54,607 bases of DNA from an uncultured Muribaculaceae bacterium (lineage in GTDB: Bacteria > Bacteroidota > Bacteroidia > Bacteroidales > Muribaculaceae), in the NCBI GenBank assembly GCA_947629175.1, contig CANRCT010000022.1, positions 1 to 54,607 of the forward strand, given 5' to 3'. Under the pieces are notes generated by a model, which was given only the letters and a program-made list of their open reading frames with translations, searched no databases and was not told where the DNA came from. Below, piece by piece: positions 41,730 to 54,607 of this stretch. The stretch's first letter is position 1. Every line of letters starts with the position of its first letter. Position numbers and translations under genes: made by a program.

Positions 41730-42359
41730 ATGATGGAAAACAAAGAATTAGACCGCATCAGCTATGCTCTCGGTCTGAGCATGGGCAACAATTTCCGCAG
41801 CAGCGGCATCGACAAGATCGACTTCAAGGATTTCGCCGATGGCGTGGCAGCCGTATATTCCGGCGAGAAGCCCCGCATGACCTACGACGAGGCCAAGGAG
41901 GAGATACGCCGCTATTTCACTGCCATGGAGGAGCGTCAGCATGCCGAGGCAGCCGAGAAAGGCAAGATCAACCGTGCGGCCGGCGAGGCTTTCCTGGCAG
42001 AGAACGCAAAGCGCCCCGAGGTGAAGACCACCGCCACCGGGCTGCAGTATGAGATCGTCAAGGAGGGCGACGGCCCGATGCCTACGGCGCAGGACTCTGT
42101 CACCGTACACTATACGGGCAAGCTTATCGACGGCACGGTGTTCGACAGCTCCGTGGAGCGCGGCGCGCCCGCCACGTTCGGCGTCAGCCAGGTGATACCC
42201 GGCTGGGTCGAGGCCCTGCAGATGATGAAGGCCGGCTCGAAGTGGCGCCTCTTCATCCCCTCGCAGCTCGCCTACGGCCCCAACGGCGCCGGCCCGGTCA
42301 TCGGCCCGGACTCCACTCTGATATTTGACGTCGAACTCATCAAGGTAGAGGGCAAATGA
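41730..42359 (+). CDS. FKBP-type peptidyl-prolyl isomerase, cytoplasmic
   Basis: A 209-residue FklB/Mip-like isomerase without a signal peptide. Residues 1-80 form the helical dimerisation domain (RISYALGLSMGNNFRSSGID). The FKBP domain at about 105-208 has SVTVHYTGKLIDGTVFDSSV, VIPGWVEALQMMKAGSKWRL and IPSQLAYGPNGAGPVIGPDS, keeping the active-site Tyr, Asp, Phe and Trp. It is the first of three FKBP genes in a row, and its stop overlaps the next start. Two adjacent in-frame ATGs (41730, 41733) are possible. Confidence 0.93.
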   Translation: MMENKELDRISYALGLSMGNNFRSSGIDKIDFKDFADGVAAVYSGEKPRMTYDEAKEEIRRYFTAMEERQHAEAAEKGKINRAAGEAFLAENAKRPEVKTTATGLQYEIVKEGDGPMPTAQDSVTVHYTGKLIDGTVFDSSVERGAPATFGVSQVIPGWVEALQMMKAGSKWRLFIPSQLAYGPNGAGPVIGPDSTLIFDVELIKVEGK

Positions 42360-43171
42360 TCCCCTCCAGGCGGCGATATGCGCTCGCACTGCTGATGTTG
42401 CTGTCCGCTTTTGCCGGCGTGGCGCAGGAGCGCGCCGACTCCGTGGCCGAAGCTTTCGCTTCGATGTGGAGCCATTATCTGACTCCGCTGACGTCGCCCG
42501 GCATGTCGGCCGACAGCGAGAAGCTCAGAGCCTATACCGACGGTTTCCGCAAGGGACTGCGCGACAGCATCGACGAGACCTACGTGCAGGGCTATTACGA
42601 GGGAGTGCAGCTCGCCTCGCGTCTGCGCACGCTCCACGGTCTGGGCCTCGACGTCGATTCCCGCCGCCTGACGACCGCTCTCGCCCGCATTTTCGGCGGA
42701 GGCAAGCCTCTTATGGCTCCGCTCGACGCCGAGGCCTACATCACGTCGCTTATAGACGTGGAGGTGCGTCCGCAGGCTCCCTCGGCAGAGGAACAGCAGG
42801 CTTTTCTCGATGAAGTGGCCGCCCGCAGCGGAGTGGAGCGCACGCCGTCGGGACTGCTCTTCGAGATCGTTGAGCCGGGTACGGGCGAAAGTCCGGGCGC
42901 CGACGACACGGCTCTGGTGACGTATACCGGCACATTTACCGACGGCCGCGAGTTCGACTCCACCGGAGCCGACACTCCCATCGAGCTGCCGCTCAACGGG
43001 GTGGTCGACGGCATGGCCGAAGGGCTCCGCAAGATGCGCAAGGGGGGCACCTACAGGCTGTTTATCCCGCCGGCCCTCGCCTACGGGTCGACCGGCGTGG
43101 GCGACGTCATCCCGCCCGGAGCAGTGATCATATTCGAGGTGAAGCTCGTCGACGTGATCAGCAGACAATAA
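42356..43171 (+). CDS. Exported FKBP-type peptidyl-prolyl isomerase
   Basis: A 271-residue protein. Residues 1-24 look like a signal peptide (RRRYALALLMLLSAFAGVAQ). A helical domain follows, then a C-terminal FKBP domain (TALVTYTGTFTDGREFDSTG, NGVVDGMAEGLRKMRKGGTY, IPPALAYGSTGVGDVIPPGA). The Trp of the active site is replaced (VVDGMAEG), so catalysis may be weaker. It probably acts on periplasmic proteins. Four-base overlap with the first FKBP gene. Confidence 0.9.
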   Translation: MIPSRRRYALALLMLLSAFAGVAQERADSVAEAFASMWSHYLTPLTSPGMSADSEKLRAYTDGFRKGLRDSIDETYVQGYYEGVQLASRLRTLHGLGLDVDSRRLTTALARIFGGGKPLMAPLDAEAYITSLIDVEVRPQAPSAEEQQAFLDEVAARSGVERTPSGLLFEIVEPGTGESPGADDTALVTYTGTFTDGREFDSTGADTPIELPLNGVVDGMAEGLRKMRKGGTYRLFIPPALAYGSTGVGDVIPPGAVIIFEVKLVDVISRQ

Positions 43172-43207
43172 ACAAAAAATTTACAAAACTATAATCAATC
43201 CATTGTT

Positions 43208-44104
43208 ATGAAAAAGATCGTTATCGCTTGCGGCATCGCCGCAATGATGATCGGCGCCACCGGCTGCGGAAAGTCGTCGAGCGCCGCACCCGAGAGTTTC
43301 AACGACTCTCTGGCCTACTATATGGGCCGCTCACAGGGCCTCATGGTAGCCGACCATTTCAAGAACTCAATGACGGCCGAGCAGCAGAAGAAGTTTGACC
43401 GCGACGCCTTCCTGCGCGGATTCAAGCAGATGATCATGACCGACACCGCCGACGCCGACTATCTGCAGGGCATCTATATGGGCATGAACATGGCGCAGCA
43501 CCTCAACTATCTGGCACAGGACTCGATCGACATCGACCGCGCCACAGTATATGCCGAGTTTGCCAAGGCGCTGAAGACCGACACGCTCAGCCCCACAGCC
43601 GTGCAGATGGAGGTAGGACAGTTCCAGATGCTCATGAACCGCGCCCAGGATCTCATGCGTCAGCGCCAGATGCGCGCCGAAGAGGCCAAGCGTAAGGCTG
43701 CCGCAGGAACCGCCAAGGACAACGAGGCCAAGGGAGCTGCTTACGTCAAGGAGCAGATAGCCGCCGATCCCGAGATCAAGACCACCGAGTCGGGTCTGGC
43801 CTACAAGGTGATCAAGCAGGGCCAGGGCGCCATGCCTACCGATGAGAGCACTGTCAAGGTGCACTACACCGGCAAACTGATCGACGGCACTGTGTTCGAC
43901 AGCTCCGTCGACCGCGGCGAGCCGGCCGATTTCCCCGTCACCCAGGTGATCAAGGGCTTCGCCGAGGGTCTGAAGATGATGAACAAAGGCTCGAAATACG
44001 TGCTGTATATCCCTGCCGAGCTCGGATATGGCGACAGCGAGGCCGGAAGCATTCCCGCCGGATCCACCCTCATTTTCGAGGTGGAGATGCTCGACGTGAA
44101 GTGA
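43208..44104 (+). CDS. FKBP-type peptidyl-prolyl isomerase lipoprotein
   Basis: A 298-residue protein. The signal ends in the lipobox IGATGC, so the mature protein is a lipoprotein. The helical dimerisation domain spans about 30-140, with an Ala/Lys/Glu-rich helix next (RQRQMRAEEAKRKAAAG). The FKBP domain is complete: STVKVHYTGKLIDGTVFDSS, VIKGFAEGLKMMNKGSKYVL, IPAELGYGDSEAGSIPAGST. It is a likely folding factor for periplasmic or outer-membrane proteins. It lies 36 bases after the second FKBP gene. Confidence 0.94.
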   Translation: MKKIVIACGIAAMMIGATGCGKSSSAAPESFNDSLAYYMGRSQGLMVADHFKNSMTAEQQKKFDRDAFLRGFKQMIMTDTADADYLQGIYMGMNMAQHLNYLAQDSIDIDRATVYAEFAKALKTDTLSPTAVQMEVGQFQMLMNRAQDLMRQRQMRAEEAKRKAAAGTAKDNEAKGAAYVKEQIAADPEIKTTESGLAYKVIKQGQGAMPTDESTVKVHYTGKLIDGTVFDSSVDRGEPADFPVTQVIKGFAEGLKMMNKGSKYVLYIPAELGYGDSEAGSIPAGSTLIFEVEMLDVK

Positions 44105-44209: not shown

Positions 44210-44416
44210 TCAGCGCCCCTGCATTATAACCTTAATTCCCGGTATGTCGAGGGGGAGGCCGGTCAGCCACAGCAGGGCGGCGACGGCGGCCGCCACGAAA
44301 AGGAATATCCCCGCCGCCCACCATATGACGCCGCGTGGCACCCCCGAGAGGATTCGGCCGACCTCTTCGCTGTGGTCGGCCACTGTGTGGCCGGTGGAGT
44401 GTCTGTTGTTTTTCAT
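44210..44416 (-). CDS. 68-residue single-pass membrane protein of the peptide operon
   Basis: A small protein I do not recognise. Its cytoplasmic part (residues 1-29) is rich in His, Ser and Glu. It is followed by one membrane segment (VIWWAAGIFLFVAAAVAALLWL, residues 30-51) and a short tail, PLDIPGIKVIMQGR. Its ATG overlaps the stop of the peptidase-ABC exporter (ATGA), which argues that it is translated and coupled. It may be an accessory or immunity-like subunit of the exporter, but this is only inferred from position and size. Confidence 0.7.
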   Translation of the reverse strand: MKNNRHSTGHTVADHSEEVGRILSGVPRGVIWWAAGIFLFVAAAVAALLWLTGLPLDIPGIKVIMQGR

Positions 44417-46629
44417 GCGTTTCCGAGTTCGAGCTGGTTTCTGACGAGATTGTAGTAGAGTCCGCGTCGCTCCACGAGCTGACTGTGGGTGCCCTGCTCG
44501 GCGATGCGTCCGCCGTCGAGCACCACGATGCAGTCGGCGTCGCGGACGGTGCTCAGACGGTGGGCCACGGTCACCACGGTTTTCCCGCGGTAGAATCCGG
44601 CCAGATTGCCCATGATGGCACGTTCGTTGTTGGCGTCGAGGGCGTTGGTGGCCTCGTCGAAAAAGATGTATCGCGGGCTTTTGTAGACGGTGCGCGCTAT
44701 CAGTATCCTCTGCCGCTGGCCCTGGCTGATGCCGCACCCCTCCATGCCTATCTTCGTGTCGTAGCCGAGCGGCAGCGAGTCGATGAATGTGTCGATGCAG
44801 GCCGTAGCGGCGGCCCGGCGCATGCGCTCCCGGTCGGGACGGTCGGCATCGACGGCTATGTTGCCGGCTATGGTGTCGGAAAAAATGAATCCGTCCTGCA
44901 CCACCGCTCCGGTGGCCGCGCGCCACGAGTGTGGATTGATGTCGGCCAGATCGCGGCCGCCGACGGTGATGCGTCCGCGGTCGGGCGCATAGAAGCCCAG
45001 GAGCAGCTTGAGCAGCGTCGTCTTGCCGCTGCCGCTCGCTCCCACTATGGCTGTCACCTTCCCGGCCGGAATCGTCAGGCTGATGTCGTGGAGCACGCGC
45101 GACCGCTCCGTTCCGTCGTAGGCGAAGCTCACGCCTTCGAGCCGCAGGTCGGCGTCGCCTGCGGGCACCTCCCCCTTCGCCTCTATGCCCTGCTCCTCGT
45201 CGCGGCGCGAGTGGATCTCGTTGAGGCGTTCGAGGCTGATCTTCGCGTCCTGCCACTGGCGTATGAATCCGATGAAGGAGTTGACCGGGCCGTTGAGCGC
45301 GCCGACGATGTAGGTCAGCGACACCATCATGCCCAGGGTCATCGTCCCCTCCACCACCCCGCGCGCGGCGATGTAGGATATGACTATGCCGGTGGCCTGG
45401 TTGAAAAACACCGAGCCGGCCTGCTGCACCTGCCCCAGCGCCTGCCCGCGCAGACCGATGTCGAACAGCTTCACCTGTATGCGCTCCCACTGCCAACGCT
45501 TGCGCCGCTCGCAGTTGTTGAGCTTGATCTCCTGCATTGCGGTCACCATCTGCACGAGGCTGCTCTGCTCGGCTGCGGCCTGCTCGAAGCGGCGGATGTC
45601 GAGATCGCGCCGGCGCTTCATGAAGGCGGTCACCCACAGTATGTAGCAGCTGTTGCCCGCAAGGAATATGCCGAGCACGAGAGGGCTGTAGACGGCGAGC
45701 ACCACCGCGAACACCAGGAAATTGACCATCGAGAAGAGCGTCGAGAGCGACGAGCCCATCAGAAACTGCTCTATGCGGCCGTGGTCGCCGATGCGCTGCA
45801 GTATGTCGCCCACATTGCGGGTGTCGAAGAAGTCGAGCGGCAGCCTCATCAGCTTGCACAGGAAGTCGGATATGAGCGATATGTTGATGCGCGCCGTCAC
45901 GTGGAGCATGATCCAGCCTCTGACGAAATCCACCGCCGTCTGCGAAGCCGTCAGCACGAGCTGCGCTATCAGTATGAGCACGATGAACCGCAGATTGCGC
46001 CCGTTGATGCCTGTGTCGACCAGCGACTGCGTCAGAAACGGGAATATCAGCTGCAGCACGCTCGCCAGCACCATCCCCGCCGCCAGCAGCCCGATCTCGC
46101 GGCCGTAGGGCCTGAGATAGCCCAGGAAGAAGCGCATGGAGCACCGGGCTGTGGCCTCGGGGTCGCTGCGGCGCTCCAGTTCGGGGCCCGGGGCGAGTGC
46201 GAGCACCGCTCCGCGCCTTGCTGCCCCTTCGCCCTCGGCTCCCCAGCATCGCAGCATCTCCTCTTCGCTGTAGACGAGCTTTTTGCTGGCCGGATCGGCT
46301 ATGTGGAAGCGGCGCCCGCGGAGGCCGCGCGTCACCCGGTGGCACACCACGAAGTGGCGCTGGTTCCAGTGGAGTATGCATGGCATAGGCACCTCCCGGG
46401 CGAGCATGTCGATGTCGATTTTCACGGCTTTGGTCCGGAAGCCTATCGCCTCAGCCGCCTCGCTGATGCCGAGCATCGACACTCCGCCCCGCGTGATGTG
46501 GCAGAGCCGTCGCAGCGTCGGGAGCGAATACTCCTTTCCGTAATGGCGCGCTATCATCCTCAGGCATGTCGGCCCGCAGTCCATCGCGTCGAGCTGCCGG
46601 TAGTGGGGGAAGGAGCGCAGCGAGATCAT
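44413..46629 (-). CDS. Peptidase-containing ABC transporter (C39 peptidase, PCAT)
   Basis: A 738-residue exporter. Residues 1-120 are a C39 cysteine peptidase that cleaves leaders after Gly-Gly: Gln12 and Cys18 in RQLDAMDCGPTCLRM, His92 in HWNQRHFVVCHR and Asp112 in HIADP. Then come six membrane segments (about 155-430) and a C-terminal ATPase with Walker A GASGSGKTTLL, signature GISQGQRQRIL and Walker B YIFFDEATNALD. All catalytic positions are present. It lies downstream of a GG-leader peptide gene in the same direction and would cleave and export the product across the inner membrane. The start at 46629 places Cys18 at the family position. Confidence 0.95.
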   Translation of the reverse strand: MISLRSFPHYRQLDAMDCGPTCLRMIARHYGKEYSLPTLRRLCHITRGGVSMLGISEAAEAIGFRTKAVKIDIDMLAREVPMPCILHWNQRHFVVCHRVTRGLRGRRFHIADPASKKLVYSEEEMLRCWGAEGEGAARRGAVLALAPGPELERRSDPEATARCSMRFFLGYLRPYGREIGLLAAGMVLASVLQLIFPFLTQSLVDTGINGRNLRFIVLILIAQLVLTASQTAVDFVRGWIMLHVTARINISLISDFLCKLMRLPLDFFDTRNVGDILQRIGDHGRIEQFLMGSSLSTLFSMVNFLVFAVVLAVYSPLVLGIFLAGNSCYILWVTAFMKRRRDLDIRRFEQAAAEQSSLVQMVTAMQEIKLNNCERRKRWQWERIQVKLFDIGLRGQALGQVQQAGSVFFNQATGIVISYIAARGVVEGTMTLGMMVSLTYIVGALNGPVNSFIGFIRQWQDAKISLERLNEIHSRRDEEQGIEAKGEVPAGDADLRLEGVSFAYDGTERSRVLHDISLTIPAGKVTAIVGASGSGKTTLLKLLLGFYAPDRGRITVGGRDLADINPHSWRAATGAVVQDGFIFSDTIAGNIAVDADRPDRERMRRAAATACIDTFIDSLPLGYDTKIGMEGCGISQGQRQRILIARTVYKSPRYIFFDEATNALDANNERAIMGNLAGFYRGKTVVTVAHRLSTVRDADCIVVLDGGRIAEQGTHSQLVERRGLYYNLVRNQLELGNA

Positions 46630-46630
46630 G

Positions 46631-47953
46631 TCAGTGAGTCGGCCGGTCGAACGGAGCGAACCAGCGGGCGATTGCGGAGGGGGAGGTGTGATGGGCGATG
46701 GCGCGGGGGAGGCGGCCGAAGAATTCGTCGGGGGTTGTGGAGACGAATCCGATCCCTTCGGCTTCGAGATCGGGGGTGTAGTCCCAGCCGGGAGTGGGGT
46801 TGAACACGAGCGGACAGCAGCCGTGGGCGATGCATTCCATGATGGTCGACGAATAGTGCGACACTGCCACCCGCGTCGAGGCGTAGACCTCCGGCAGGGG
46901 CATGTCGCTGACATCCCTTACGCCGGGCTCGGCGTCGAGCCGCTGCCTTACGGCGGGATCGATGCGCGACTCCGGATGGAGCCGGTAGTGCACGGGCAGC
47001 CCCGGAGAGCGCCGTGCCGTGGCCACAATAAGGTCGTACATCTGCCCGACCATCCTCGGCGAGCTTGCAAAGTATGGCTCCTGGAGGAAGAACGTCACAG
47101 CGTCGCGGCTCCCCTCAGCCTTCACCTTGTAGGGATAGCCGCCCGACAGGCATTCCGTTCCGGGATTGTAATGATGCCACAGATCGTTGAAGGCTTCTCC
47201 CCATGTGATCATGCGCGTGTAAGGCATCCCGACAAATCCTGCATGCATGAATGCCGGCCATCCCTGCTGATAGCAGATGCTTTCGGCGCCTCTTGCCGCA
47301 CATATTTCCGCCCAGATTTTGCCTATCACCTGACATCCGCAGATCGTGTGGAACCGTTGTGGCATAATTATCGAGTCCAGCAATTTGACAGTGTTGCAAA
47401 AAGAGTAATACACCGGAAAATGCCGTTCAATGAAATCATTCCTGTAAAGGCGCATGCGCAGATCGTAAAACCTGACGGCAGTCATGTAATGAGGCAGCCC
47501 GATCCGGTCGTAATCGATCTCATCCTCGCTGACAATCACCCCATTCTTCCGGCCTGATCTGATCCAAGGTATCAGGCAGGCTGCCATCCGCTCGAAGTTG
47601 GCGTAATACAAATCGCTGCCTTGTAATGGCGAAAGCGCCGATATCCATTTGCGTGCTACCGATGTCAATGGCAGGGGCTCCGGCGATATGACGTCGGCAT
47701 CTGTGGGTGATGGAAGCGCGATCATGGATGCGATCAGCCTGTCGGGCTGCTCTCCGTCACTTCTCCTGCGGCAATATTCATCGCGCAGCGGGTAGTTGCT
47801 GTAGTTGACGTAACTTTCAAGCGAGCCGCTCACATTCACATCGCCCATCACCATGAAATCTTTGTAAGTGGTGATCCACGCACTTACGGAATCTTTCAGC
47901 AGCGTGAAAAATTCCGTAATGTATGCGTCGGGGTTTTTCGATGTCTGACTCAT
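46631..47953 (-). CDS. GT-B-like glycosyltransferase of the peptide operon
   Basis: A 440-residue soluble protein. The C-terminal half resembles a GT-B nucleotide-sugar domain of the KpsS/CDP-glycerol/polysialyltransferase type: PVHYRLHPESRIDPAV, SDMPLPEVYASTRVAVSHYS and STIMECIAHGCCPLVFN (acidic residue of the donor site). The N-terminal part is not recognised. It is one base before the exporter gene and 15 bases after the barrel gene, so it is clearly part of the operon. Donor and acceptor are unknown. A CMP-sugar made by the nearby NeuA-like enzyme is an attractive but unproven donor. Confidence 0.72.
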   Translation of the reverse strand: MSQTSKNPDAYITEFFTLLKDSVSAWITTYKDFMVMGDVNVSGSLESYVNYSNYPLRDEYCRRRSDGEQPDRLIASMIALPSPTDADVISPEPLPLTSVARKWISALSPLQGSDLYYANFERMAACLIPWIRSGRKNGVIVSEDEIDYDRIGLPHYMTAVRFYDLRMRLYRNDFIERHFPVYYSFCNTVKLLDSIIMPQRFHTICGCQVIGKIWAEICAARGAESICYQQGWPAFMHAGFVGMPYTRMITWGEAFNDLWHHYNPGTECLSGGYPYKVKAEGSRDAVTFFLQEPYFASSPRMVGQMYDLIVATARRSPGLPVHYRLHPESRIDPAVRQRLDAEPGVRDVSDMPLPEVYASTRVAVSHYSSTIMECIAHGCCPLVFNPTPGWDYTPDLEAEGIGFVSTTPDEFFGRLPRAIAHHTSPSAIARWFAPFDRPTH

Positions 47954-47968
47954 GACGGGCTCTGTCGG

Positions 47969-50839
47969 TCAGCGTTTCTTCGGCTGTATCATGAAGCGGT
48001 ATTGCACATGGAGGAGTGCGTAGCGGGGCAGTACGTTGGTGTAGACTTCGGTGCGGCCTTGCGCGTTGACGTTGTAGCTGACATTGCTGAGCTGGTTGAG
48101 CAGATCGAAGCCGTCGAGCATGAATGTCCACCGTCCGCCTTTGAGGGAGCATGCGAGGCGTGCGTTCCACACAAGGTCGGTTGAGTTGAGCGACGGATCG
48201 GCGTAACCGCGGCGGGTGTAGACGTTGAAGTCGCTCGACAGCTCGAAGTTGTAGGGCAGTGCGAGCTTTCCGGCCAGAGTGGCTGTGGTGTTGGTGGCCG
48301 AGAAGTTGTTGAAGCCGGTGCGGTCGCCCTGCGTGTCGCGCCAGTTGACATTGCCGTTCACGCGGAGTTCATGCTTGCCAATCTGCCATGACAGCCCGAG
48401 GGTCTGGCCGAGTACCGTGTTCTTGACGGCTGTGCGGCTCACTTCGCCCCCGACGGTTCCTACCATATCGGCAGCACGCAGATATGTGGCCTGGGTGTTG
48501 GAGCTGAGGGTGAACTGGTCGGTCATGCCGAATGTCTTTGAATAGTAGTTGTTGAGCCCCAGATTCCAGTTGCCCGAGGTGTTGTAGACCTGATACGTGC
48601 GCACGCCTGTCGTGGGGTCGTAGCTGTAGCCGTTGACGAGTGCGTTCTGCTTTATGTCGGCCGAGAGTACAAGGCGTTCGTTGTAGCGGTGACGTCCGCT
48701 GCTGTATTTGTACCACTGGAGTTCGATGATGTTGTCGGCGGCGTTTTTCAGGTCGGACGCTCCCCTGAAGATATTAAGCGGGTCGCGCAGATCGGTGACA
48801 TCCACCAGCCGGTTGAGCTCCACTTGCCGGATATTGCGACGGTATTCGAGCTTCAGGTGCTGCGGTCCGAACCGGTAGAGAAGATACATCTGCATAACCG
48901 ATATGTCGAGACCGTTTTTCTTCACTTTCTGACTGAGGTTGCTCTGACGGTAGTCGAGTCTGCGCCAGCGGTAGTCGACAGATGGATTGAAGTGGAGTGA
49001 AAAACTTCTGTCGTCGGCAATCTCTATCTCCTGATGGAGGGTGAGCTGCGCTCCGGCGAGGTTCTGCCGTTCGGTGCTGAAATAGGTCTGGTCATGGTTG
49101 AGGGCCGAGCGGTAGTTATCGGGCAGACGTCCGAACACTCCCATGTCGGAAAGCCTGTCGAGCTGATAGAGGTAGGAGTCCTTGGTGTGGCGCGCGAAGC
49201 TCCAGCGGGGCTGTACGTTGAGCGAGCCGTTATCGCTGAAGACGTAAGTGTAGCTCGGCGATGCGAAGAAGCTCCATGCGTGGTCGGGAGCGTTTTTGGC
49301 ATACTGGTAGTCGGTGGTGCCCGGGCGTCCGCTGTTGCCGTAGCGGATGTCGTAGAGATCAAACGCGCCGTAATGGCTGGCGTTGTAGTCGGCGTCGAGA
49401 TACAGCCCTACGAGATCGGGGCTGTAAGAGAGTTTGCCCTCGGCGTTGGCGGAGATCTTCGCGTTCAGTGTGTGGCCGGCCATTGCCGAGCGTTTGATGC
49501 TTGTGTTGACAGCCTTGTCGGCGAGCGATTCGGCCTGGCCGTTGTGGATCTGTTCGAGCAGTGCGGCCGTGGCATCGGCAAGCTCACTGTTGAATGTGCC
49601 TGATATCTGGCTGGCCGTGCGGTCGCGCCTGATGTAGCTGAAATTCTGGCTGAGGGATATATATTTATCTTTGGGCCGCAGTGTCAGGTTGTTGTCGGTT
49701 GTCAGGGTGAGATTATGGCCGATGGCGTGGGCGAAGCGGTTGTCGTAGGTGTCGCCCGACGGGATGAAGTTGGTGATGTCGGTGGTGGTGATGTCGTTGG
49801 AGCGGGTATGTTCGGCTGTCGAGTTGCCCGAGAACTCCCAGCTCTTGTCGTCGCGTGCCGACACGTAGTAGTCGAGTCCGGCCATTTTGGTACGGAAATC
49901 GCCGGGAGTGCGGGTGACGCTCCACGATCCGTTCTGTCCGGGCGTGCGCGAGTCATTGAGGTTGTTGACGGCTCCGACGAGCGTCAGGCGCGAGCGGGTG
50001 GTATACCACATGCCGAAGAGCCGTCCGAGATAGCGGTCGGCCGTGCCGCCTCCGGCCTCGATGTTGAAGATATATCCGCTCATGTATTCGCGTTTGAGCC
50101 TGACGTCCATGACGTATTGCTTGTCGCCCAGATCGCGGCCTGCCAGCATGCTTCGCTCGCCGAGCTTGTCGTAGACGGCGATGTTTTTGACCGTGTATGC
50201 CCCGAGATTGTTGAGCATTATCCGGTTGTCGCCCTTGAAAAAATCTTTGCCGTTGAGCAGCAGGCTCTCCACGTATTTGCCGTTGACGTAGATCTGTCCG
50301 TTGTCCTTGAGCTCCACGCCGGGCAGCTGCCTGACAAGCACGTCGAGCATCGATCCGTGGGCGAGGCTGAATGCGTCGGCGTTGTAGACGAGCGTGTCCC
50401 CCTTGTGATAGAACTTTACCTTTGTCGCCTTGACCACCACTTCGTCAAGCACCTTGGTCTTGCGGTAGACAGGCAGTTCGGGTAGCTCGCGCTCGAGTTC
50501 CCGCCCTCCGATATGGCCGATATCTACGCTGTTGCGGAGCGTGTCGTAGTCGTTGTGGGCCACGACGATTGTGTATTTGCCCTCCCTGCGCGGGACTTCG
50601 CATATATAGTCGAGCATAAACACCATGTCGCCACCCTGCGACTTGTAATATGCCTTGGGTCGGGCTTTTGAGATTGTATCGCCGGTGGCGGCATCGAGAA
50701 GCACCACCCGCGCCTTCTTGACAGGCTCCATCGTAAGCCCGTCGACCACGCGCGCTTTCAGCGAAAGCTTCGGCCCGTCGGCTCTCGCCGTCAACGCCGC
50801 CAATAGCATAGCCGCAATGACAAAGATGATTTTTTTCAT
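47969..50839 (-). CDS. Outer-membrane beta-barrel protein with carboxypeptidase-regulatory-like and plug domains
   Basis: A 956-residue protein with a signal peptide (KKIIFVIAAMLLAALTARAD). Residues 22-140 include a CarboxypepD-reg-like/Cna-B fold (LKARVVDGLTMEPVKKARVV). A plug-like segment follows (LDEVVVKATKVKFYHKGDTL, then SMLDVLVRQLPGVELKDNGQ), and the rest is a long beta-barrel ending LHVQYRFMIQPKKR. It resembles TonB-linked OMP_b-brl_3 family proteins, not a SusC with a SusD partner. Between maturase and exporter genes, it may let the product cross, or bind it at, the outer membrane. Confidence 0.85.
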   Translation of the reverse strand: MKKIIFVIAAMLLAALTARADGPKLSLKARVVDGLTMEPVKKARVVLLDAATGDTISKARPKAYYKSQGGDMVFMLDYICEVPRREGKYTIVVAHNDYDTLRNSVDIGHIGGRELERELPELPVYRKTKVLDEVVVKATKVKFYHKGDTLVYNADAFSLAHGSMLDVLVRQLPGVELKDNGQIYVNGKYVESLLLNGKDFFKGDNRIMLNNLGAYTVKNIAVYDKLGERSMLAGRDLGDKQYVMDVRLKREYMSGYIFNIEAGGGTADRYLGRLFGMWYTTRSRLTLVGAVNNLNDSRTPGQNGSWSVTRTPGDFRTKMAGLDYYVSARDDKSWEFSGNSTAEHTRSNDITTTDITNFIPSGDTYDNRFAHAIGHNLTLTTDNNLTLRPKDKYISLSQNFSYIRRDRTASQISGTFNSELADATAALLEQIHNGQAESLADKAVNTSIKRSAMAGHTLNAKISANAEGKLSYSPDLVGLYLDADYNASHYGAFDLYDIRYGNSGRPGTTDYQYAKNAPDHAWSFFASPSYTYVFSDNGSLNVQPRWSFARHTKDSYLYQLDRLSDMGVFGRLPDNYRSALNHDQTYFSTERQNLAGAQLTLHQEIEIADDRSFSLHFNPSVDYRWRRLDYRQSNLSQKVKKNGLDISVMQMYLLYRFGPQHLKLEYRRNIRQVELNRLVDVTDLRDPLNIFRGASDLKNAADNIIELQWYKYSSGRHRYNERLVLSADIKQNALVNGYSYDPTTGVRTYQVYNTSGNWNLGLNNYYSKTFGMTDQFTLSSNTQATYLRAADMVGTVGGEVSRTAVKNTVLGQTLGLSWQIGKHELRVNGNVNWRDTQGDRTGFNNFSATNTTATLAGKLALPYNFELSSDFNVYTRRGYADPSLNSTDLVWNARLACSLKGGRWTFMLDGFDLLNQLSNVSYNVNAQGRTEVYTNVLPRYALLHVQYRFMIQPKKR

Positions 50840-50850
50840 GTCGGTGTAAT

Positions 50851-52146
50851 TTAAGGATTTTTTTTGGTTTTCTGCCTGCAAAGATAATGAAACCATAGAT
50901 AATCATCAATATTATCTTTAATCAAAGGGCAATCATTTTGTGTCTCTCCGCGTTCGAGACGTTTGATGCGCTCGTAGGGGCAACCACCGTTGCATACCGG
51001 AAACAGCAAGCATTTCAGACAGTTAGAGTCTTCGAGAGGATCAGCTTTGGTTTTATATGAGATGAACAGGGACTCGTTTGTCAGATTCTCTCTGATGTTG
51101 CCGTATACCCTTGACGGATTCCCCACATCGTTCCAGCAGCCATACAACTCGCCTTCCGGCCCTATGACATAGGTAGCACGCTTGCGTATAGCGCATTCCA
51201 TGCTGAATGATTGAGGATAAAAATTGTCAAATACCAGTCCATGTTCATTAAACATCCTGATGGCAAATGACTTCCTTTCGTTTCTGTCATAAAGGTTGCA
51301 TGTGCCTTTTTCAGTGGAATCACCGGTAAAGGCTGGGAATACGCTTATCTTTCCATCGAATTCTTTTGCGATGAACTTATATAATGTGATGAATTCCCGG
51401 TCGTTCTCATGGTCGATGTTTACTCTTACGCCGATACGGATTGCTGGAGCGAATTCGCGGAGCAGTCTCATTGAAGAGATTATTTTATCGAATGTCGGTC
51501 CGCCGTTTTTCAGACAGCGACGACTGTCATGCCGGTCTTTTAGTCCGTCAAGGGTGATCTGCATAGTGCTTATTTTCAGCTGTGACATCCGTTTTGCCAC
51601 ATCCTCGTTTACCAGATATCCGTTGCTTATTATTCCTGCATCGTATTCAAGTCCGAGTGACATCAGTTTATTGGAAAGACTTTCTATCCTATTGAACGCG
51701 ATGAGCGGTTCGCCTCCAAACCATGTGACGCGCATGGATCTGGCTTCACTATGCGACTTGATGAATTCTACAATCTGATCCTCTATCTCGGTGGTCATAG
51801 TCTTGCCGCTGTGATCGTATTCAAAACAATATGGACATGCGAAGTTGCATGCGAGAGTCGGATTGATGGTCAGAGCAAGGTGTGAATCGTTGAAACGAGT
51901 GGAACGGATGACATATTTGATTTTTTCCACTTCAAATTCATCATTGGCTATGCCCTTTATCTTCAGGAGCATCTCTTTGATGTCTTCAGGTAGCGTGGAG
52001 GTGTCTTCGCCTGGTTGCAGCTTTGATAACAGATCATATGACTCCTTGTCCAAAGCCACGAAAGCATTGGACAAGGAGTTGTAGAGAAGATTTACATTTT
52101 CCCGCGAGAAGAGATAGTTGAATCGGGAAAAGCGGTTTTCTGCCAT
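50851..52146 (-). CDS. Radical SAM/SPASM peptide maturase
   Basis: A 431-residue enzyme. The N-terminal 90 residues may be a peptide-recognition (PqqD-like) domain. The radical SAM motif is CNFACPYC (Cys100, 104, 107), followed by VTWFGGEPLIAFNRIESL and ISNGYLV. The SPASM domain has Cys318, then Cys337 in GELYGC, and CLKCLLFPVCNGGC (Cys376, 379, 385, 389) with Cys406, matching the consensus for two auxiliary clusters. Such enzymes form Cys-to-carbon thioethers or C-C links on RiPP precursors. It starts five bases after the Cys-rich precursor gene, the obvious substrate. Nature of the crosslink unknown. Confidence 0.92.
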   Translation of the reverse strand: MAENRFSRFNYLFSRENVNLLYNSLSNAFVALDKESYDLLSKLQPGEDTSTLPEDIKEMLLKIKGIANDEFEVEKIKYVIRSTRFNDSHLALTINPTLACNFACPYCFEYDHSGKTMTTEIEDQIVEFIKSHSEARSMRVTWFGGEPLIAFNRIESLSNKLMSLGLEYDAGIISNGYLVNEDVAKRMSQLKISTMQITLDGLKDRHDSRRCLKNGGPTFDKIISSMRLLREFAPAIRIGVRVNIDHENDREFITLYKFIAKEFDGKISVFPAFTGDSTEKGTCNLYDRNERKSFAIRMFNEHGLVFDNFYPQSFSMECAIRKRATYVIGPEGELYGCWNDVGNPSRVYGNIRENLTNESLFISYKTKADPLEDSNCLKCLLFPVCNGGCPYERIKRLERGETQNDCPLIKDNIDDYLWFHYLCRQKTKKNP

Positions 52147-52151
52147 GCCGA

Positions 52152-52415
52152 TTATGGTTTGGGAAGTACGTAATTCGTGCAGGTAGAAGAATGTTCAGCA
52201 CAGAATGAATCTCCTGTAGTAGACCCATGGCAATCGCAGTTCAGATCGTACCCTTTACCGTGTGAGTCAAGTGAGCAAGTGCTCTCTTTGTTTCCGAAAC
52301 ACTGCGTGTACCTGATTTCACAAAGTGTTCCTCCCAGAATGTGTGATGTGCCGGCTGCGGAGATTGTTATCTCCGGGCGGGGCAGTTCGATGAACTGGAA
52401 TTTTTCTTTTTCCAT
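52152..52415 (-). CDS. Cys-rich RiPP precursor peptide with Gly-Gly leader motif
   Basis: An 87-residue peptide. Residues 1-29 look like a leader (MEKEKFQFIELPRPEITISA, then AGTSHILGG) ending in a double glycine, the cleavage signal for the C39 exporter. The 58-residue core has seven cysteines (32, 39, 47, 60, 62, 72, 79), including CDC, and many Ser, Thr, Gly and His. The radical SAM gene follows after five bases. I know no named family that it clearly belongs to. An unmodified disulfide-rich peptide is a less likely alternative. Confidence 0.82.
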   Translation of the reverse strand: MEKEKFQFIELPRPEITISAAGTSHILGGTLCEIRYTQCFGNKESTCSLDSHGKGYDLNCDCHGSTTGDSFCAEHSSTCTNYVLPKP

Positions 52416-52493: not shown

Positions 52494-53126
52494 CTAGTCG
52501 ATGGGTTCGTCGATGTCGATGTCGGTGCCGGGCGATGTCTCCACGATGCATATACGTCCCGAAAGGAGGCGTCCGCTGCGGGTGATGTCGCCGACTGTTG
52601 ATGCATAGAAAGCTCCTGTCTCTATGAGAGTTCCCCCGAAAGCCTGTCGGAGCGGCTTGGCGTCGAGCTGGTAGCTCAACGGCGTGCCGTCGCTCTGCCA
52701 GATGAATCGCTTGGACCGGAGGCACGAGATATAGGAGTCGGCTTGCTTCGCCTCGACGGCGCTCTGCAGGCTGCGGAAGTCGCCGGGCGTGGTGAATGGG
52801 AAGGTGGCCTGCGCGAGCACGAGCATGTCGGCGGGGTCATGGTCTGTGGCGGCGATAAACTCCCTGACCACTTCGATGACAGGGGATGTATCGGTGGCCG
52901 ACGAGTCGCTGCGGCGGTAAATGCCTACCGAGGGGTGCGACTCCCGGAGGTATCGCTCTGCCCGGTCATCGTCGGTAGCCACCCATATCTCGTCGGCGGT
53001 CTGCGAGGCCACGATGGCGTCGAGTACCCAGGCCACGAGAGGCTTTCCGCCAAGAAGCTTCATGTTCTTGTCGGGGACCCCCTTGCTCCCTTTGCGGACG
53101 GGGATAAGGTAGACGAGCCGAGCCAT
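52494..53126 (-). CDS. NeuA-like acylneuraminate (CMP-sugar) cytidylyltransferase, C-terminal helix cut by amber codon
   Basis: A 210-residue CMP-sugar synthetase of the NeuA/PseF type. The CTP-binding motif is LIPVRKGSKGVPDKNMKLLG, with PLVAWVLDAIVAS, EIWVATDDDRAE, VLAQATFPFTTPGDF and the late metal motif GTDIDIDEPID. At that point the frame meets TAG (52494-52496), where the family has Trp. The next 14 codons read LKAEALAKAGSMIR and end at TAA (52449-52451), matching the usual terminal helix. The enzyme would activate a nonulosonic or Kdo-like acid. It lies upstream of the peptide gene on the same strand. Confidence 0.85.
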   Translation of the reverse strand: MARLVYLIPVRKGSKGVPDKNMKLLGGKPLVAWVLDAIVASQTADEIWVATDDDRAERYLRESHPSVGIYRRSDSSATDTSPVIEVVREFIAATDHDPADMLVLAQATFPFTTPGDFRSLQSAVEAKQADSYISCLRSKRFIWQSDGTPLSYQLDAKPLRQAFGGTLIETGAFYASTVGDITRSGRLLSGRICIVETSPGTDIDIDEPID

Positions 53127-53153: not shown

Positions 53154-53540
53154 TTAGAGGACGAGGTATCCGGCGAGGGCGTAGCCGTCGCCGCGCAGTT
53201 TGATCACTACGGCCTGATCAGATGATGCAGCGAGCGCGTCGAGAAACTCCTCTTTGCTGCCGAACACCTGCAGGCAGGACTGTCCGTCGGCGTCCCATAT
53301 CTCGAAGGTGTCGGCGTTGGTGACTTTTTCCGACGTACTTTTGATCGTGCGTGCATCCGTGTCGATTATGCAGCTAATCGGCCGCGGCGGTGTACGGTGC
53401 CCTTTGTCTTTCGGGTCAGGGATGGGATCGGTATTTTCAGGTTCCGGTTCCGGAAAAAGAGTTACCGGTGTTTCGGCAGCGACTGAAAATGCCAACGATC
53501 CGAGGAGGCAGATGACTCCGATAATTATGCGTTGTATCAT
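53154..53540 (-). CDS. Small exported protein (DUF3244-like)
   Basis: A predicted secreted protein of 128 residues. The signal peptide is IQRIIIGVICLLGSLAFSVA. A Pro/Glu-rich stretch (PEPEPENTDPIPDPKDKGH) links to a compact beta domain from about 60 to the end (IDTDARTIKSTSEKVT to VVIKLRGDGYALAGYLVL), similar in layout to DUF3244. I use the second ATG (53540) because the -7 box at 53570-53577 puts initiation at the first ATG (53564). It is 27 bases upstream of the NeuA-like gene. Confidence 0.65.
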   Translation of the reverse strand: MIQRIIIGVICLLGSLAFSVAAETPVTLFPEPEPENTDPIPDPKDKGHRTPPRPISCIIDTDARTIKSTSEKVTNADTFEIWDADGQSCLQVFGSKEEFLDALAASSDQAVVIKLRGDGYALAGYLVL

Positions 53541-53569
53541 GCTTATATGTGTTGATGTTTTCATAGACG

Positions 53570-53577
53570 CAAATTTA
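53570..53577 (-). promoter_or_regulatory. -7 box of the exported protein/NeuA/peptide transcript
   Basis: Minus-strand TAAATTTG. Initiation would be near 53564, about 25 bases before the ATG at 53540. No other good box was seen between here and the exporter, so this could drive the whole leftward array. Confidence 0.5.
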
Positions 53578-53758: not shown

Positions 53759-54457
53759 TCAAAGGTTTTGAATGAGTTTGTCGACTAAGGCAGGGCTCAG
53801 TTTTCCATTCATTATTTTTTCTCCGATGGTTCTGCGACGGAATGTGATGGTACAGGCTTCCCGTCCGAATACTTTGCTTTGTTCTGCCGGTTTTATTCCC
53901 GCTTTGATCAGGAGAATGGTGTGGAATTCTTCAGTAGTGATCCTGCCTTCAGAAAGAATGCGTATTTTTTTGTCAAAATCTGGTGATACTTTGCAAATCA
54001 GTTCAAGAAGCTCGTCCCATATCTGATCATTGTCGTTGATTACTCTGTTTTGAGATATAGCATTCTTGAGGCGTACGTAAGTCTCGGAATTAAGAATGCG
54101 GTCGGGGACGGAGTATCGTTTTTCCGACAGTTTGTCAAGCGATTCTATATATTCATTCAGATCAGTGCGGTATGCAGTAGCTTCTCTATCACCGTCAACG
54201 TCACTTTCTGAGTGTGATGAATCGTCAGCGGTAGAGGTTTTTGATGATTTTATCTCAAATGCCTTATTCAGGACATTCAGCCGGTAATTTACATCAAACA
54301 GTTCGTTCTTTGATTGCTGATAGCGGTAACGGAGAAACAGAATCACGCAAAGAATGGCCATAATGACGGCTACAGCGCCAATCAGTATGATAATCAGTGT
54401 GTCGTTTTCGCTTTCAGCCTGCTGGCGTGCGCGTTCATGAATCGAATAGTCATACAT
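53759..54457 (-). pseudogene. C-terminal part of a membrane-anchored TPR/helix-turn-helix regulator, 5' end broken
   Basis: The open frame gives 232 residues. One membrane segment (TLIIILIGAVAVIMAILCVILFL, about 20-42) is followed by a cytoplasmic coiled region and a C-terminal helix-turn-helix-like part (GRITTEEFHTILLIKAGIKPA then EQSKVFGREACTITFRRRTI). This layout fits the tail of Bacteroidetes regulators with periplasmic TPR repeats. Coding-like sequence in the same frame extends to 54535 (YFDKNLEVTERHYNAHEQQA) and then hits TAG. The TPR part is missing, and unrelated sequence lies upstream. It may once have controlled the peptide locus. Confidence 0.65.
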
Positions 54458-54607
54458 GGATGCCTGAATGATAGCAGCCTGTTGCTCATGGGCATTGTAG
54501 TGTCTCTCTGTGACTTCAAGATTCTTGTCAAAATACTACTGGTGCGATAAAATCGCGTTAGTTTAGAAATCATCAAATAAAGAGAGTTCTTTGACATTTT
54601 GATTTGA

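What the first reader, a model, noticed from the sequence alone, without database searches (positions are those of the whole stretch)
44210..52415. Radical-SAM RiPP operon with outer-membrane barrel, glycosyltransferase and peptidase-exporter
Seen: six leftward genes with gaps of 1-15 bases or overlaps encode a GG-leader Cys-rich peptide, a SPASM radical SAM enzyme, an outer-membrane barrel, a GT-B-like glycosyltransferase, a C39-peptidase ABC exporter and a 68-residue membrane protein. Known: C39 exporters cut after Gly-Gly, and SPASM enzymes crosslink peptides. Inference: one system makes, trims and exports a modified peptide, with a barrel built into the operon. I know no described RiPP class with this exact set.
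Basis: partly seen in the sequence, partly recalled or inferred. Interest (0 to 1): 0.88.

Follow-up and report, generated by a model that had tools for sequence, protein, structure and literature searches.

The report
Radical-SAM peptide operon with sugar module
A relative of the gut bacterium Paramuribaculum carries an eight-gene operon that probably cross-links a cysteine-rich peptide, may attach a sialic-acid-like sugar to it, and exports it with a cut-down pump; if shown at the bench, that combination would be an unusual new variant of a ribosomal peptide product.

Summary
The six leftward genes are real and at the stated coordinates, but the operon is longer and two parts were misread. 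Two same-strand genes precede the precursor: a secreted 136-aa protein and a NeuA-like CMP-nonulosonic-acid synthetase. The synthetase subfamily (374 bits or more; next best 118) and the glycosyltransferase occur in the same 4 of 397 family genomes; one of these genomes carries both again beside a second, TIGR04148-type RiPP cluster. The '68-residue membrane protein' matches the N-terminus of HlyD membrane-fusion proteins (98.2%, 55 columns) and lacks their periplasmic part. Maturase, barrel and exporter form a patchy but recurrent set (30 of 397 genomes; 33 of 38 maturase-family genes followed by a barrel). Best reading: a crosslinked Cys-rich RiPP, tailored with a CMP-activated ulosonic acid, exported by a C39 transporter with a headless HlyD and a TonB-receptor-type barrel. 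Crosslink, sugar and acceptor are inferred; the transferase has no family match, and the window's synthetase gene ends early at an in-frame TAG. Known kind (rSAM RiPP), apparently new variant; the open-access searches listed no such RiPP.

The parts
53759..54607 (-). C-terminal part of an upstream regulator-like protein (family F1), cut by the contig end; probably a separate transcript (inference)
   Evidence: 67% identical over 258 aa to the F1 protein of L042; F1 proteins lie upstream in many related clusters; weak DUF6377 match below cut-off
53570..53577 (-). possible Bacteroidetes -7 element TAAATTTG
   Evidence: pattern is common in the window (26 against 10.7 expected)
53154..53564 (-). 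136-aa protein of unknown role, signal-peptide-like N-terminus (DUF136 here)
   Evidence: 74% identical copy in L042; dN/dS 0.148 against L042; weak relatives (27-29%) in families F16 and F21 of other clusters; no Pfam or NCBIfam match
52494..53126 (-). CMP-nonulosonic-acid (NeuA-like) synthetase; ends at an in-frame TAG before the ends of its six aligned relatives
   Evidence: PF02348 82.8 bits against 22.6; profile A3 best PDB matches are NeuA-type enzymes, E 2.2e-36 and 3e-34, first KdsB 2.7e-9; stop seen
52152..52415 (-). precursor peptide, 29-aa leader ending Gly-Gly, 58-aa Cys-rich core
   Evidence: dN/dS 0.125 against L038
50851..52146 (-). radical SAM/SPASM peptide maturase
   Evidence: closest solved relative 5wgg (radical SAM domain protein; the name CteB and its SCIFF role are recalled), E 7.6e-19
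47969..50839 (-). TonB-receptor-type outer-membrane barrel with N-terminal domain and plug-like region
46631..47953 (-). GT-B-fold glycosyltransferase-like protein with HP motif
44413..46629 (-). C39-peptidase ABC exporter
   Evidence: PF03412 111.1, PF00005 104, PF00664 86.9 bits, all over cut-off
44210..44416 (-). N-terminal stub of an HlyD membrane-fusion protein (cytosolic tail and one TM helix)
   Evidence: stub profile A4 against 7 HlyD proteins: 98.2%, E 3.5e-14, 55 columns; no Pfam match of its own

Best explanation
An eight-gene operon makes a tailored ribosomal peptide. The precursor's Gly-Gly leader guides a SPASM radical SAM enzyme that crosslinks the Cys-rich core (likely thioethers). 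A dedicated NeuA-like synthetase makes a CMP-activated nonulosonic acid, most likely CMP-N-acetylneuraminate because the genome encodes NeuB and NeuC, and the GT-B enzyme puts that sugar on the peptide or on a first sugar. The C39 exporter cuts the leader after Gly-Gly and moves the product across the inner membrane; its partner is a headless HlyD that keeps only the exporter-facing tail and TM helix, so a continuous HlyD-TolC duct is unlikely. The operon's own TonB-receptor-type barrel then serves as outer-membrane partner (exit, or re-uptake and self-protection). Shown: gene content, order, selection, homology of the parts, co-occurrence of synthetase and GT. Inferred: crosslink type, sugar identity, acceptor, barrel role.
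For: Gene order and selection. The synthetase is nearest to NeuA among solved structures; its subfamily (7 copies of 374 bits or more) and the GT occur in the same 4 of 397 family genomes, next best synthetase 118 bits (profile A3 was built from these 7 copies). The synthetase is in 6 of 6 clusters of this clade whose upstream side is visible (window, L039 twice, L040, L041, L042). In C51 of the same genome an rSAM passing TIGR04148 (476.5 against 300) lies near a synthetase and a GT whose frames overlap by 4 bases, beside a barrel of the same family. The genome has NeuB and NeuC over NCBIfam cut-offs. The GT model is GT-B and has the HP motif, which is involved in CMP-Neu5Ac binding in a bacterial polysialyltransferase (PMC2169525, abstract and passages). 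Profile scores against Capsule_synth sets (37.3; 34.7 with 6 stricter rows) and polysialyltransferase sets (34.8; 27.8 with 5 stricter rows) exceed 60 column shuffles of each first set (at most 20.6) and an epimerase set (20.2), but the probabilities are only 4-23%. Other sugar-transfer-like genes stand in the operons of L043 and L070/L071. HlyD stub.
Confidence: 0.45

Rival explanations
1. The synthetase and GT decorate the cell surface or the barrel (for self-protection or receptor masking), and the exported peptide itself is only crosslinked.
For: The Pfam families whose profiles are most like the GT of those compared are capsule-type; barrel and GT are duplicated together in L042 (barrel-GT-barrel-GT); most relatives of the operon lack the sugar genes.
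Against: 7 of 7 synthetase copies of this subfamily lie in RiPP clusters, the set is reused with a second RiPP type, and other GT-like proteins stand between barrel and exporter in L043 and L070/L071.
Confidence: 0.25
2. An ordinary radical SAM RiPP operon whose sugar genes are passengers or are decaying in this strain; the product is a crosslinked peptide without sugar.
For: In-frame TAG in the window's synthetase, with some positions conserved in relatives lost behind it; sugar genes in only 4 of 397 genomes; 220-aa proteins that cover or resemble only part of the GT elsewhere in the genome.
Against: dN/dS 0.159 for GT (window/L038, 323 codons) and 0.174 for synthetase (window/L042); the conserved acidic stretch near the synthetase's end is kept before the TAG; the synthetase is kept in 6 of 6 visible clusters of the clade.
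Confidence: 0.2
3. The barrel is a TonB-dependent uptake receptor for the mature peptide (metallophore-like or immunity role), not an exit route.
For: The model resembles TonB-dependent transporters including a plug-like region (much of that region has pLDDT under 50); a full HlyD and a barrel-like protein coexist in L112.
Against: In this family the exporter's HlyD is reduced (9 of 9 own-family hits), leaving outer-membrane passage unexplained unless another protein provides it; the barrel follows the maturase in 33 of 38 cases.
Confidence: 0.35

Closest known systems
Bacteroidales RiPP clusters BGC6-9 of PMC10352776 (abstract, passages and section 3.2 read)
   Same: C39 exporter plus outer-membrane protein and no identified membrane-fusion protein; rSAM enzyme in BGC6-8; Gly-Gly-type precursors in most of the paper's clusters; glycosyltransferase in BGC9
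   Different: BGC6-8 also have YcaO and BGC9 has LanM instead of rSAM; no CMP-sugar synthetase or HlyD stub is mentioned in the section read
GG-Bacteroidales system (TIGR04148/04149/04150/04157; system name recalled)
   Same: Gly-Gly leader and rSAM maturase; one such cluster in the same genome carries a synthetase-GT-barrel set
   Different: The window's precursor has no NCBIfam match, and TIGR04148 is not among the 25 best of 82 maturase matches (weakest shown 52 bits; TIGR04148 cut-off 300)
SCIFF / ranthipeptide maturases (5wgg, PapB)
   Same: SPASM radical SAM enzyme acting on Cys-rich peptides (recalled); 5wgg is the closest solved structure
   Different: Far below family cut-offs; crosslink chemistry untested
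Bacterial sialyl- and Kdo-transferases of GT-B fold (polysialyltransferase 5wc6, Capsule_synth family)
   Same: GT-B fold, HP motif, and here a CMP-sugar synthetase in the same operon
   Different: No family-level match, D/E-D/E-G motif not seen, coupled to a RiPP operon
Mycofactocin (recalled, no call)
   Same: rSAM-modified ribosomal peptide that is glycosylated
   Different: Glucose polymer by a GT2 enzyme, redox cofactor, no C39 exporter

Membership tests
rSAM/SPASM-modified RiPP operon | Radical_SAM and SPASM domains over curated cut-offs | tested here: met
   PF04055 70.9 against 29.5; TIGR04085 55 against 27
rSAM/SPASM-modified RiPP operon | Adjacent leader-core precursor under purifying selection | tested here: met
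rSAM/SPASM-modified RiPP operon | Crosslinked product | not testable with these tools
   needs mass spectrometry
TIGR04463 family (rSAM_vs_C_rich) | Maturase score over 525 bits | tested here: not met
   242.7 bits, the best NCBIfam match
Ranthipeptide / SCIFF maturases | PapB NF047865 (340) or TIGR03974 (425) cut-off | tested here: not met
   119.2 and 86.9 bits
GG-Bacteroidales (TIGR04148/04149) | Precursor matches TIGR04149 | tested here: not met
   0 NCBIfam families for the precursor at E up to 1; the C51 precursor reaches the cut-off at 25 against 25
C39 peptidase-containing exporter | Peptidase_C39, ABC_membrane, ABC_tran over cut-off | tested here: met
HlyD membrane-fusion protein | N-terminal tail and TM helix, encoded after the exporter gene | tested here: met
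   98.2%, 55 columns; 5 of the 7 full HlyD genes compared follow a C39 exporter (L096, L097, L101, L102, L105), L099 is at a contig edge and L104 follows another gene
HlyD membrane-fusion protein | Periplasmic domain PF13437 | tested here: not met
   0 Pfam families in the 68-aa protein; PF13437 in 7 of 7 full-length relatives
CMP-nonulosonic-acid synthetase | CTP_transf_3 domain and NeuA-like profile | tested here: met
CMP-nonulosonic-acid synthetase | NCBIfam equivalog PseF (TIGR03584) cut-off | tested here: not met
   52.8 against 205.7 bits, the best NCBIfam match
CMP-nonulosonic-acid synthetase | Intact C-terminus | tested here: not met
   the window's copy stops earlier than its six aligned relatives
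Bacterial sialyltransferases with HP motif (GT38/GT52/GT80) | HP motif | tested here: met
   6 of 6 full-length rows
Bacterial sialyltransferases with HP motif (GT38/GT52/GT80) | D/E-D/E-G motif | tested here: not met
   Q-x-G-W in 7 of 7 rows that cover the place I judge equivalent; that equivalence is my inference
Bacterial sialyltransferases with HP motif (GT38/GT52/GT80) | Pfam family match | tested here: not met
   no glycosyltransferase family at E up to 0.1 in any of 9 rows
TonB-dependent transporter-type barrel | Fold | tested here: met
TonB-dependent transporter-type barrel | TonB box and folded plug | tested here: inconclusive
   much of the plug region is modelled below pLDDT 50; TonB box not examined

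The most novel reading that the evidence does not exclude
A ribosomal peptide carrying a sialic-acid-type sugar: the first RiPP pathway with its own CMP-nonulosonic-acid synthetase and matching transferase, a module shared between two different RiPP classes in one genome, and exported by a C39 transporter whose HlyD has shrunk to a membrane anchor, with a TonB-receptor-type barrel taking over the outer membrane.
Probability: 0.35. Interest if true: 0.85.

Novelty: new variant of a known kind. Interest (0 to 1): 0.62.

Why it matters
A sialic-acid-type sugar on a bacterial peptide would be a new kind of RiPP tailoring, and in a gut commensal it could affect how host lectins or other microbes see the peptide. 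The HlyD stub raises a testable question about how Gram-negative gut bacteria export peptides without a standard tripartite duct. A named relative with a strain number (Paramuribaculum intestinale DSM 100749, 87% identical maturase) is available for the tests.

Tried and rejected
Filing the maturase under TIGR04463, PapB or SCIFF: all far below cut-off. Filing the GT as a sialyltransferase: no family match and one of two motifs not seen. Reading the GT as a UDP-GlcNAc 2-epimerase because these top the fold list: profile similarity to a five-row epimerase set (20.2) is no better than the best shuffles of other sets (up to 20.6), and GT-like genes stand in its operon slot elsewhere; not excluded. 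'Barrel replaces HlyD': weakened by L112. NeuB as a specific marker: it is in 13 of the 16 genus genomes searched, of 34 with handles.

Flaws in the comparison sets: the first polysialyltransferase set (8 rows) held a probably wrong ORF (L123) and two rows below the family cut-off that look epimerase-like (L128, L129); the first Capsule_synth set (8 rows) held a wrong-strand ORF (L136) and a row below cut-off (L137). One search used 5 and 6 rows without them (its label 'kps7' is wrong) and no shuffles of its own. Alignment A6 still had L128 and L129, matched epimerases best, and its 62.7% is not used. The sets came from 149 and 99 genomes. In the rSAM tree the L048 rows were dropped because a neighbour is a MiaB-type (UPF0004) enzyme; 37 rows used. 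Foldseek's plain 'pdb' search was never accepted; the VIA lists are a second look at Foldseek's own candidates.

Precursor-maturase swapping: in the window, precursor and rSAM have GC3 0.47-0.50 against 0.70-0.86 for synthetase, barrel, GT, C39 and stub and 0.61 for the 136-aa protein; L041/L042 maturases are nearly identical (dS 0.007) while their synthetases differ (dS 0.30). Against it, the L042 maturase has GC3 0.69 like its neighbours, and in L038 the contrast is smaller. Suggestive, not followed further.
Full report
What is there. The window is a whole contig (C22) of a 2.94-Mb, 79-contig genome. Its nearest relatives with a name are Paramuribaculum intestinale DSM 100749 (L008, 5569 bases like the contig of L038; family Muribaculaceae) and a MAG labelled Barnesiella sp. 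(L009 and L010, contig lengths as for L040 and L039). The six leftward genes of the finding are confirmed with gaps of 5, 11, 15 and 1 bases and a 4-base overlap. Two more same-strand genes stand upstream: a 136-aa protein with a signal-like N-terminus (53564-53154) and a CTP_transf_3 protein (53126-52494; 82.8 bits against 22.6), 27 and 78 bases from the next gene. Further up lies the C-terminal part of a regulator-like protein cut by the contig end (67% identical over 258 aa to that of L042).

Recurrence. With the maturase as query, 30 of 397 family genomes and 2 of 395 class genomes (own genome included in both) match at E up to 1e-40. I fetched 35 stretches around the matches. On them my gene calling found 38 maturase-family genes in maturase orientation; 33 are followed, with at most two small ORFs between, by a protein of one of two barrel families (F4, the window's; F2, one of whose members scores 128.9 bits for OMP_b-brl_3). 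Of the other five, two run off the contig (L054, L066), two are in L048 beside MiaB-like enzymes, and one (second gene of L047) is followed by a 720-aa protein without a Pfam match. By my reading, 29 of the 38 have a Gly-Gly peptide with four or more Cys within 1300 bases upstream; L065 has Gly-Gly peptides with one Cys; L044, L045, L048 (two), L055, L060, L064 and L068 show none there. So precursor, maturase, barrel and, where the contig allows, C39 exporter form a patchy but real system of this family.

The sugar module. Only the window's clade has this CMP synthetase and this GT. The GT occurs in 4 of 397 family genomes, all of one genus. A profile of the synthetase finds seven copies of 374 bits or more in exactly the same four genomes; the next best is 118 bits. 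The profile was built from those seven copies, but another genome with such a gene should have shown. The synthetase is seen in 6 of 6 clusters of the clade whose upstream side is on the contig (window, L039 twice, L040, L041, L042). In the own genome a second cluster (C51, L085) has an rSAM enzyme passing TIGR04148 (476.5 against 300), a precursor at the TIGR04149 cut-off (25 against 25), a pseudo-rSAM and a TIGR04157-like glycosyltransferase below theirs (200.1 against 250; 284.4 against 400), and next to them a synthetase (48% identical), a GT (32%) and a barrel (31%). The GT there has a C-terminal extension that is presumably the one methyltransferase match. There synthetase and GT overlap by 4 bases. 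Two further contigs (C79, C42) hold 220-aa proteins beside a GT-A-like enzyme (read from the sequence) and a C39 exporter; the C79 one matches the GT N-terminus (21%, query residues 9-222), the C42 one only looks similar to it.

Which sugar. Among solved structures the synthetase profile is closest to NeuA-type enzymes (2.2e-36, 3e-34), far before KdsB (2.7e-9). The genome encodes NeuB (477.6 against 399.65) and NeuC (429.3 against 235.9) side by side, and another NeuA-like gene elsewhere, so N-acetylneuraminate is the likeliest substrate and the operon's synthetase an extra copy. But NeuB is in 4 of 4 GT-bearing and 9 of 12 GT-less genomes of the genus that I searched, and that of G017 is of a weaker-scoring type, so this is supply, not proof. 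The window's own synthetase gene stops at an in-frame TAG before the ends of its six aligned relatives, which are intact; whether it is active is unknown.

Other GTs in the family. L043, sister to the window clade (99/96 support), has a DUF3405 protein (26.8 bits against 25; unknown function in Pfam) between barrel and exporter, and downstream a galactosyltransferase-like protein (Glyco_transf_7C, 22.2 against 23) and a Branch-type glycosyltransferase (94.1 against 23.4) with a weak methyltransferase match. L070 and L071, in a separate clade with L069 (95/93), have a protein of the same sequence family (F13; L070 copy 35 bits for Glyco_transf_7C against 23) between barrel and exporter. The window clade itself is supported at 94/87. 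Sugar transfer thus seems to have joined this RiPP family more than once, which favours the peptide as target; one gain with losses is not excluded, as several deep forks are weak.

The HlyD stub. The stub profile aligns with the N-termini of seven HlyD proteins (98.2%, E 3.5e-14, 55 columns), all seven with PF13437. In a search of 61 genomes, the nine hits in the own family have open frames of 52-199 aa, except the window's own frame, reported as 746 because that frame is open through the exporter gene (the gene itself is 68 aa; some of these rows are in the profile). Of eleven hits in other families of the order, ten have open frames of 338-459 aa and one of 230. Of the seven full HlyD genes compared, five follow a C39 exporter, one is at a contig edge and one follows another gene. 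Longer stubs of 162-174 aa occur in L072, L085 and L117. So this lineage seems to have reduced the adaptor to the part that faces the exporter. Against a simple replacement by the barrel, L112 has a barrel-like protein (22% identical to F2), C39 exporter and full HlyD together.

Novelty. Ten searches of open-access papers were made. Those aimed at the system, its sugar and its stub listed no RiPP with a nonulosonic acid or a CMP-sugar synthetase in its cluster and no such HlyD stub, judged from titles and starts of abstracts; the lists were capped (20 of 29, 15 of 23, 12 of 16). Searches looked for family names and the HP motif. I read one section, the abstract and passages of PMC10352776 and passages of two other papers; subscription papers are not held. 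The system is an rSAM RiPP operon, a known kind, with an apparently new tailoring module and exporter variant.

Noticed in passing
53126-52494: The CMP synthetase gene ends at an in-frame TAG earlier than its six aligned relatives: strain-specific damage, sequencing error or tolerated shortening.
   Followed up: partly
L085 (G000:C51): Second RiPP cluster of the same genome (TIGR04148-type rSAM, two Gly-Gly peptides, a 209-aa LanM-like fragment, two 387-413-aa secreted-looking proteins) beside a CMP synthetase, a GT with a C-terminal extension and a barrel; its left end has the end of a C39 exporter and a 172-aa HlyD-like stub.
   Followed up: partly
L117 (G000:C42) and L086 (G000:C79): 220-aa proteins that match (C79) or resemble (C42) the N-terminal part of the GT, next to a GT-A-like enzyme and a C39 exporter; the GT's N-terminal part may be a module of its own.
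   Followed up: no
L042:752-9214: Tandem barrel-GT-barrel-GT arrangement in one operon.
   Followed up: no
52415-50851 and L041/L042: In the window, precursor and maturase have much lower GC3 than the rest of the operon; in L041/L042 a near-identical precursor-maturase stretch is flanked by more diverged DNA: possible cassette exchange (the L042 maturase itself has ordinary GC3).
   Followed up: partly
41733-44104: Three tandem genes on the opposite strand that look like FKBP-type isomerases (read from the sequence, not tested); a similar trio follows the exporter end in L118 and L121, so the operons seem to sit at one conserved site in three genomes.
   Followed up: no
L048:5837-12276: Run of radical SAM genes, one scanned and found to be a UPF0004 (MiaB-like) enzyme, matched by the maturase search; not RiPP-like.
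   Followed up: no
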